Source of the DNA: Hypericum androsaemum | Lineage: Eukaryota > Streptophyta > Magnoliopsida > Malpighiales > Hypericaceae | Direction of reading: 5' to 3' | Assembly (NCBI GenBank): GCA_963995505.1 | Contig: OZ023185.1 | Span: 15,759,691-15,823,690, forward strand | DNA: 64,000 nt | The notes under the pieces: generated by a model | Databases searched by the model: none | What the model was told of the DNA's origin: nothing | Seen by the model: the letters and a program-made list of their open reading frames with translations, nothing else | Part shown: piece by piece, positions 12,745 through 13,667 of the stretch | Layout of the letters: each line of letters opens with the position of its first letter | Numbering within the stretch: position 1 is the stretch's first letter | Position numbers and translations under genes: made by a program

Positions 12745-13667
12745 CTAACCCATGGCATATGTCTGGGTCCAGTATCTGGCGATTGCCTCGTACATGGCCC
12801 TGTCCGTCTTGTACAAGTGGGCGATCTCAGGCACCCATGGATCATCCGGGTTCGGGTCATCCAGCAGTGAGCAGATCGACAAGAGTACCTACAGAAACAA
12901 TATCTAAGTCATGTATGGATTGGACAAGCGCGAGTGAATAGGTTAAGAAAAAGACCTTGGGAATAGTGAGGGCGGGACTCCACTGCAGCGGCTCTTGGAG
13001 GATGTCAATGCCGATGCTGCCGTTGATACTGATATTTGGATGGAACACCTTCGTCTTGAAGGACACCTGACAAACACACACACGAGAACTAATCAGACCA
13101 CAACGGATCCAATCAATTGGACGAAAAAGAGAGAAGCTTGGGAGACTGGTTACCTTAGGGGGCGTGTGAGGGTAATCAGGTGGGAAGTGGATGGTGACGA
13201 AGAAGACGCCGCCGGCGAAGGGGCTATCATCTGGGCCCATGATGCAACCTTCCCAGTGGTATACATCATCATCCCCAACCGGACCTGTAATCACCACGGA
13301 ACCCCAAGTCAAAGTCGAGCAATCAAAGTAAAGGTGACAACTTTTGAAACAAAAAGAGAAGAGAAAAATAAACAAAAAACAAACCGGCGCTGCAATAAGC
13401 GGGTGGGTCTTTCCGGAGGTCCTTTAGCTCGTTGTTGATGCGCTTTGATGCTCTAATATGATCGCCGTGGCGGCGGAGGAGGGAGCGGACATAGTCGAGG
13501 CTGAAGGAGAGGAGGTAGAGAATGGAGGCGAGGAGGGCGGGTATGGCGGCAATCTCGGAGAGGGTGAGGAGGTGGAGTGGGGTGGCCGTACGGATCTTCT
13601 CCCTCCATCGGCCCAGCAAAAAGTAGACCATCCAGAAGAAGAGGCCGAAGAAGATGGCCTTGGTCAT
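12745..13667 (-). CDS. Chimeric gene: HMG-CoA reductase membrane anchor fused to an UBC8-type E2 fold lacking the catalytic Cys
   Basis: Four coding exons (minus): 13667-13385, 13284-13154, 13066-12956, 12888-12745. All junctions are GT-AG and the joined 669 nt encode 222 residues without a stop. Residues 1-71 match the plant HMG-CoA reductase N-terminal anchor: first helix ([15 protein letters not shown]), then [19 protein letters not shown] and a second helix ending in ILYLL. From residue 72 it becomes an UBC8/UBC10-type E2 core ([58 protein letters not shown]-terminal YAMG). The HPN motif is at 147-149, but the catalytic position 157 is Gly (GGC) in SIGIDIL, where active E2s have SICLDIL. 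A two-residue insert follows (QEPLQWSP for KEQWSP). By the topology of HMGR, the E2 fold would face the cytosol at the ER. Predicted to be unable to form a ubiquitin thioester; an UEV-like or dominant-negative role is inference. Introns inside the E2 part argue against a retrocopy. It could be an expressed new gene or a young pseudogene. Confidence 0.85.

What the first reader, a model, noticed from the sequence alone, without database searches (positions are those of the whole stretch)
12745..13667. Chimeric gene: HMG-CoA reductase ER anchor fused to an E2 ubiquitin-conjugating fold
Residues 1-71 match the HMGR two-helix membrane domain ([18 protein letters not shown], two hydrophobic helices) and residues 72-222 are a full UBC8-type E2 fold, joined inside one exon and followed by three in-phase exons with canonical splice sites. 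HMGR turnover is itself ubiquitin-dependent, so an E2-like fold on an HMGR anchor could sit beside HMGR at the ER. I know of no described protein of this architecture.
Basis: partly seen in the sequence, partly recalled or inferred. Interest (0 to 1): 0.92.

Follow-up and report, generated by a model that had tools for sequence, protein, structure and literature searches.

The report
HMGR anchor fused to inactive E2
A plant chromosome carries an intact-looking gene pieced together from other genes, joining the membrane anchor of a sterol-pathway enzyme to a ubiquitin-carrying enzyme that has lost its active site; whether the plant uses it is not known.

Summary
The fusion is real. On the minus strand, four exons (13667-12745) encode 222 residues without an internal stop. 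Residues 1-70 derive from HMG-CoA reductase (HMGR) exon 1; residues 73-222 derive from a UBC28-type, group VI ubiquitin-conjugating enzyme (E2).

The source genome (385 Mb) holds both parental genes: an HMGR on C14 whose start codon the fusion shares, and an E2 on C8 whose introns align. The 5' leader matches a third locus, upstream of a DnaJ-domain gene on C3. The duplicated region on C1 lacks the fusion. None of the 120 listed protein relatives carries it.

E3-contact residues are changed too. It cannot work as an E2.

Constraint is relaxed: omega is about 0.5 and not distinguishable from 1, against 0.003-0.07 on live E2 branches. Yet four of four coding indels are in frame, so the frame was kept for much of its history.

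If translated, it is probably an ER-anchored pseudo-E2. A decaying chimera is somewhat more likely than a functional gene. Expression was not testable.

The parts
14624..14629 (-). TATA-like box (TATAAA in ATATATAAATG), candidate core promoter
   Evidence: Pattern match only; not shown to be used
13818..14344 (-). 5' leader from a third donor: matches C3:15982624-15983147, about 80% DNA identity, which lies upstream of a DnaJ-domain gene on C3
   Evidence: Genome DNA search (6 matches including itself, so low-copy); alignment; C3 gene ORF and domains
13692..14149 (-). Putative 5'UTR intron: donor-like CCAACGG/GTAAACTC near 14149 (same letters in the C3 locus) to acceptor TTTTTTTTCCCTGATAG/G ending at 13692
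   Evidence: Sequence and alignment only; splicing not tested
13459..13691 (-). HMGR-derived piece: end of HMGR 5'UTR, HMGR start codon (13667-13665) and first four codons, then a 78-bp in-frame deletion, then both membrane helices and the loop [13 protein letters not shown]
   Evidence: 85% DNA identity over 207 bp to the C14 HMGR gene L059; shared GGTTGATACCGAG...AGAGAGAG-ATGA-C-AAGGC start
13452..13458 (-). Junction, 7 bases (TATTAGA) between the two homologies; the E2 start codon is lost
13385..13667 (-). Coding exon 1 (residues 1-94 and first base of codon 95)
13154..13284 (-). Coding exon 2; one inserted codon relative to live E2s (GDDD); F62H, K63T
12956..13066 (-). Coding exon 3; HPN kept, catalytic Cys85 is Gly ([15 protein letters not shown]), two inserted codons (QEPLQW) beside the E3-contact SPA loop
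12745..12888 (-). Coding exon 4 and stop codon; homology to the C8 E2 gene ends at the stop codon
11489..23059 (.). Block present on C6 but without counterpart in the duplicated C1 region (apart from short repeat matches); contains the fusion gene, a copia gag fragment and TIR elements
   Evidence: blastn and tblastn against C1:11108900-11128899

Best explanation
This is a young chimeric gene built at the DNA level from three donors in one orientation: a 5' leader from a DnaJ-domain gene (C3), the 5' end of HMGR exon 1 (C14) and the intron-containing coding part of a UBC28-type E2 (C8). The frame starts at the HMGR start codon, runs through both HMGR membrane helices and enters the E2 at its second codon. 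If translated, the product would be a two-helix ER membrane protein with an E2 fold facing the cytosol (topology inferred from plant HMGR). That fold cannot carry ubiquitin, because the thioester cysteine is Gly, and it should bind RING/U-box ligases poorly, because F62, K63 and K8 are changed and two residues are inserted beside the SPA loop. So it can act only as a non-catalytic binder or decoy, or do nothing. Shown: origin, frame, splice sites, active-site loss, relaxed constraint. Inferred: transcription, ER location, any role. I put a non-functional or decaying chimera at about 0.55 and some protein-level function at about 0.4.
For: Gene model. E2 domain and HMGR-only matches of residues 1-71. 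Parents: C14 HMGR L059, 85% DNA identity over 207 bp, with the start-codon context shared; C8 E2 L057, 78% over 562 bp running through introns 2 and 3, plus 78% over 158 bp across exon 1 and intron 1. Exon lengths equal those of L057 apart from +3 and +6. Leader donor on C3 with DnaJ plus DUF3444. Absent from the colinear C1 region. Gly at Cys85, with 7 of 7 intact E2s of the same genome keeping C85, F62, K63, K8 and HPN. Live-E2 branches omega 0.003-0.068 against 0.516 on the fusion branch.
Against: No transcript or protein evidence. Omega = 1 on the fusion branch is not rejected (2dlnL 0.30), and new residues fall as often at family-invariant sites as expected by chance (14 of 24 against 91 of 148; counted). 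The topology is not tested. The mechanism of assembly is not resolved: no inverted repeats flank the gene.
Confidence: 0.85

Rival explanations
1. Non-functional chimera: a duplicated and rearranged gene fragment that happens to keep its frame and is drifting.
For: Omega about 0.5 on the fusion branch, not distinguishable from 1. 24 of 148 positions hold residues seen in none of 77 live E2 rows, against a median of 0 and a maximum of 8 unique residues per live row. The missense spectrum of the E2 part does not differ clearly from neutral (P = 0.14 for BLOSUM score). HMGR exon-1 fragments are scattered and broken elsewhere in this genome.
Against: No stop and no frameshift; 4 of 4 coding indels in frame (+3 and +6 in E2, -3 and -78 in HMGR); splice sites kept. 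Simulated probability of an intact E2 frame is 0.007 or less if neutral over the whole branch, 0.06-0.001 if neutral for half, 0.24-0.03 if neutral for a quarter. These rest on intron indel rates that I counted by hand.
Confidence: 0.55
2. Functional ER-anchored pseudo-E2 that modulates HMGR turnover: the HMGR hairpin places a dead group VI E2 where HMGR-degrading ligases act, as decoy or competitor.
For: The anchor is that of HMGR and the E2 belongs to the group that the HMGR-controlling ligase MKB1 binds: in yeast two-hybrid MKB1 without its C-terminus bound AtUBC8-11 and AtUBC28-30 (group VI), and also AtUBC15 and 18 (PMC7940691, section 16). Frame kept. Pseudo-E2s with roles are known (UEVs; PMC2396629 passages).
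Against: F62 is central to the E2-ligase contact and UbcH5a does not tolerate Met there (PMC2396629 passages); the fusion has His, plus K63T, K8N and an insert, so ligase binding is doubtful. No expression data; constraint is weak. Group VI E2s are promiscuous (PMC7940691), so the pairing may be coincidence.
Confidence: 0.15
3. Active E2 tethered to the ER by the HMGR anchor.
For: Most of the E2 fold and the HPN motif are kept.
Against: Catalytic Cys is Gly. No canonical thioester is possible.
Confidence: 0.01
4. Assembly or gene-model artefact: the HMGR and E2 pieces are not contiguous in the plant.
For: Not excluded by reads, which were not available; a 13.7-kb near-identical tandem repeat lies elsewhere in the window.
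Against: Both pieces differ from their parents (85% and 78% DNA identity), so parental sequence was not simply joined; the join is in frame; introns align with the E2 parent; flanks are colinear with C1.
Confidence: 0.03

Closest known systems
Plant group VI E2 (UBC8-11, UBC28-30)
   Same: E2 domain, HPN motif and intron positions; nearest intact gene is the UBC28-like L057 of the same genome
   Different: No catalytic Cys, F62H/K63T/K8N, +1 and +2 residues, HMGR hairpin in front, own start codon lost
Plant HMG-CoA reductase membrane domain
   Same: Two hydrophobic helices and the loop [13 protein letters not shown]
   Different: 26 residues of the N-terminal tail deleted, no linker or catalytic domain
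UEV and COP10-type E2 variants
   Same: E2 fold without the catalytic Cys
   Different: Different ancestry: here a recent UBC28 derivative, not a UEV; membrane anchor added (UEV facts from PMC2396629 passages; COP10 recalled)
UBC6-type ER E2s (UBC32-34)
   Same: E2 fold predicted at the ER membrane
   Different: Those carry a C-terminal membrane segment (PMC4012192 passages) and are enzymes; here the anchor is N-terminal and the E2 is dead
Gossypium two-domain pseudo-E2s (such as P0008)
   Same: UBC8-like domains with Gly at the Cys position
   Different: No membrane anchor; the tree places them apart from the query, which suggests independent loss, though both branches are long
Young fusion genes of plants (310 reported in Oryza; PMC9199173, abstract read)
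   Same: Recent chimera of duplicated parental genes
   Different: Different parents; expression here unknown

Membership tests
E2 ubiquitin-conjugating enzyme | UBC fold / UQ_con domain | tested here: met
   PF00179, 2e-47, residues 76-215
E2 ubiquitin-conjugating enzyme | Catalytic cysteine | tested here: not met
   Gly at C85; 7 of 7 intact own-genome E2s have Cys
E2 ubiquitin-conjugating enzyme | HPN motif | tested here: met
   HPN kept
E2 ubiquitin-conjugating enzyme | Forms ubiquitin thioester | not testable with these tools
   Needs an assay; not expected without Cys
Group VI (UBC8/UBC28) lineage | Common descent with UBC28-like genes | tested here: met
   Introns and exons align with L057; tree places it among UBC28-like rows without strong support for the exact fork
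UEV family | E2-like fold without catalytic Cys | tested here: met
UEV family | Descent from the UEV lineage and partnership with UBC13 | tested here: not met
   Descent is from a UBC28-type gene; partnership not tested
UBC6/UBC32-type ER E2 | C-terminal membrane anchor | tested here: not met
   Sequence ends in the E2 domain; hydrophobic helices are at residues 1-58
HMG-CoA reductase | Catalytic domain PF00368 | tested here: not met
   Pfam finds UQ_con and a sub-threshold RWD match only
Chimeric fusion gene | Parts of two or more identifiable parental genes in one frame | tested here: met
Chimeric fusion gene (functional) | Transcription and selection on the protein | tested here: inconclusive
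   No RNA available; omega not below 1 with significance but frame kept

The most novel reading that the evidence does not exclude
A newly born ER-resident pseudo-E2 regulates HMGR: the HMGR hairpin targets a dead member of the E2 group that serves the HMGR-degrading ligase, so substrate anchor and enzyme decoy were joined in one step and tune isoprenoid flux.
Probability: 0.12. Interest if true: 0.85.

Novelty: new variant of a known kind. Interest (0 to 1): 0.45.

Why it matters
If functional, it would be a natural decoy whose localisation signal comes from the substrate of a degradation pathway and whose body comes from that pathway's E2 group, made within the lifetime of a paralogue pair and traceable to its donors. 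Even if it is not used, it is a cleanly resolved case of a three-donor chimeric gene, with the in-frame internal deletion, the lost start codon, the lost active site and the empty duplicated site all visible in one genome.

Tried and rejected
Active-enzyme reading: rejected, Cys is Gly. Retroposition: rejected, introns of the E2 parent are kept and align. Common origin with the Gossypium dead E2s: not supported by the tree, with the caveat of long branches, few columns and a bootstrap that had not settled. Origin from the mobile HMGR fragments (L061-L063): rejected, those derive from the C4 gene L060 (96.6-97.7%), whereas the fusion matches them at only about 76% and L059 at 85%. Insertion through a TIR element: no inverted repeats flanking the gene were found in 5000-24000. 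Helitron-like end: one candidate at 11231 on the plus strand, pointing away from the gene and inside a short inverted-repeat pair (I10); not used. Maximum-likelihood omega for the HMGR part: ill-conditioned (parent omega 73), discarded. First neutral test against protein consensus: weak, joint P 0.05 for E2. Conservation test: changes look depleted at invariant sites (P 0.005), but this mixes inherited clade differences with new ones; the 24 new residues alone are not depleted (14 at invariant sites). Promoter and 3' source: leader found; the 3' side search did not complete. Homeologous E2 copy on C1: absent in the 20 kb examined. Literature: eight searches; no listing described an HMGR-E2 fusion, in an open-access library only.

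Full report
What is there. The gene is on the minus strand, with coding exons 13667-13385, 13284-13154, 13066-12956 and 12888-12745, GT-AG introns and 222 residues without an internal stop. Pfam finds UQ_con at residues 76-215 (2e-47) and nothing for residues 1-76. Residues 1-76 or 1-71 searched as a region bring up HMG-CoA reductases only: 2 of 2 hits and 6 of 6. The 19-residue hydropathy peaks are at residues 1-19 and 28-60. Among 6494 E2 relatives the best 120 were listed. None of these 120 has an HMGR-like stretch; the only match to residues 1-71 outside the HMGRs is a chance one at E = 8. The fusion was therefore not seen among annotated proteins within that search's reach: shared 5-residue words and 0.55 to 1.75 times the query's length.

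Parents. The own genome (385 Mb, 29 contigs; window at C6:15759691-15823690) was searched. The HMGR part has 12 matches at E up to 1, itself included. The best is an HMGR exon 1 on C14 (L059; 75% protein identity, 85% DNA identity over 207 bp), whose exon carries PF00368. The fusion shares its start-codon context. HMGR residues 5-30 (78 bp) are deleted in frame between the short repeats CAAGGC and CAACGC. The E2 part is closest to L057 on C8, a UBC28-like gene. Exons and introns are colinear, with 78% identity over 562 bp (exons 2-4, introns 2 and 3) and over 158 bp (exon 1 and part of intron 1). Intron 1 is 100 bp here and 312 bp in L057. Homology starts at E2 codon 2 and stops at the stop codon. 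Seven intact UBC8-type genes were assembled (L051-L057); an eighth locus, L058, shows only exon 4.

Leader. The region upstream of the start codon gave 6 matches including itself. The best other match, C3:15982624-15983147 (about 80%), covers window 14344-13818. On C3 it lies about 1.7-2.3 kb upstream of an open frame of 605 residues with DnaJ, DUF3444 and a zinc ribbon. A donor-like site (CCAACGGGTAAACTC) is shared with the C3 locus, and a strong-looking acceptor lies 24 bases before the start codon. All three donor pieces have the same orientation. That the leader is a 5'UTR with an intron is inferred.

Place and age. The window is colinear with C1:11108900-11128899 in inverted orientation: receptor kinase 87%, USP 92% and LRR gene 85% DNA identity, with dS of 0.43, 0.22 and 0.33. 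Between window 11488 and 23060 there is no C1 counterpart apart from short repeat matches, and tblastn finds no E2 or fusion in the 20 kb read. The fusion either arrived on C6 after the duplication or was lost from C1. Synonymous distances to the parents are 0.43 (E2, L057) and 0.22 (HMGR, L059), upper bounds on the age of the fusion and similar to the duplication.

Activity. Relative to 77 live E2 rows, 24 of 148 positions hold residues seen in none of them; live rows have a median of 0 and a maximum of 8 unique residues. Among the changes are C85G, L86I, F62H, K63T, K8N, K90Q and L119W. All seven intact E2s of the genome keep K8, F62, K63, C85 and HPN; the fusion keeps HPN only. In UbcH5a, F62 is the centre of the contact with the CHIP U-box, and Met there is not tolerated (PMC2396629, passages). 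The two-residue insert lies just before the SPA loop that also makes ligase contacts. A ubiquitin thioester is therefore impossible, and ligase binding doubtful.

Selection. Pairwise NG86 against L057 gives dN 0.114, dS 0.431, omega 0.265; two pairs of live E2 paralogues have dN 0. On a four-gene tree the fusion branch has omega 0.516, L057 0.068 and the others 0.003, with saturated outgroup distances. Omega = 1 for the fusion branch is not rejected (2dlnL 0.30), and equality of the fusion and L057 branches is only weakly rejected (2dlnL 3.46). Against pure drift, 4 of 4 coding indels are in frame (+3, +6, -3, -78). With indel rates counted by hand from the introns, an intact E2 frame has probability 0.007 or less if the branch was neutral throughout, 0.06-0.001 if for half of it, and 0.24-0.03 if for a quarter. 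The reading most in line with all this: constrained for part of its life as an E2, then relaxed; still intact either by recency or by selection on a changed protein.

How it might work. [quoted passage not shown] MKB1 without its C-terminus bound AtUBC8-11 and AtUBC28-30, group VI, as well as AtUBC15 and 18 (same paper, section 16 read). The fusion thus joins the substrate's anchor to a dead member of the E2 group of its ligase. This makes a decoy role testable, but group VI E2s are called promiscuous in that section, and the altered contact surface argues against simple competition. I put a role in HMGR turnover at about 0.15.

Comparison. Known plant ER E2s carry a C-terminal anchor (UBC32-34; PMC4012192, passages). 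UEVs lack the cysteine but have another ancestry. Among the 120 listed E2 relatives, 107 show the Cys pattern, 9 show Gly, His or similar with Gly as the pattern call (all Gossypium by name) and 4 did not match the pattern. The tree sets the split Gossypium domains apart from the query. Fusion genes are common in plants (310 in four Oryza genomes; PMC9199173, abstract). The finding is a new variant of that known kind.

Noticed in passing
35647-49344 and 49339-63035: Near-perfect tandem duplication of 13.7 kb (99.93% identity) holding a B-box zinc-finger gene and copia-type sequences; either very recent or an assembly duplication.
   Followed up: partly
L061 (C3:7.74 Mb), L062 (C6:4.05 Mb), L063 (C13:9.39 Mb): A 697-bp piece of HMGR exon 1 from the C4 gene (L060) sits in three copies of a roughly 1.3-kb element with 270-295-bp terminal inverted repeats: gene capture by a Pack-type TIR element, frames broken in spite of about 97% identity.
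   Followed up: partly
P0008, P0009, P0012, P0016, P0018, P0020, P0022, P0028, P0029 (Gossypium): Cotton proteins made of UBC8-like domains with Gly in place of the catalytic Cys, found in several Gossypium species.
   Followed up: partly
15237-19488: Cluster of elements with inverted repeats (pairs of 56-148 nt) right upstream of the fusion gene.
   Followed up: no
11849-12286: Copia-type gag fragment (PF14244) just downstream of the fusion gene, on the other strand.
   Followed up: no
2-3643: Open LINE-type reverse transcriptase frame with RVT_1, zf-RVT and RVT_3.
   Followed up: no
L058 (C8:5068827-5068991): Isolated match to E2 exon 4 (72% to the E2 consensus row) without the other exons nearby: E2 fragment.
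   Followed up: no
L066 (C16:11046554-11046670): A 115-bp HMGR membrane-segment piece (93% to L060) inside an unrelated 145-aa open frame.
   Followed up: no
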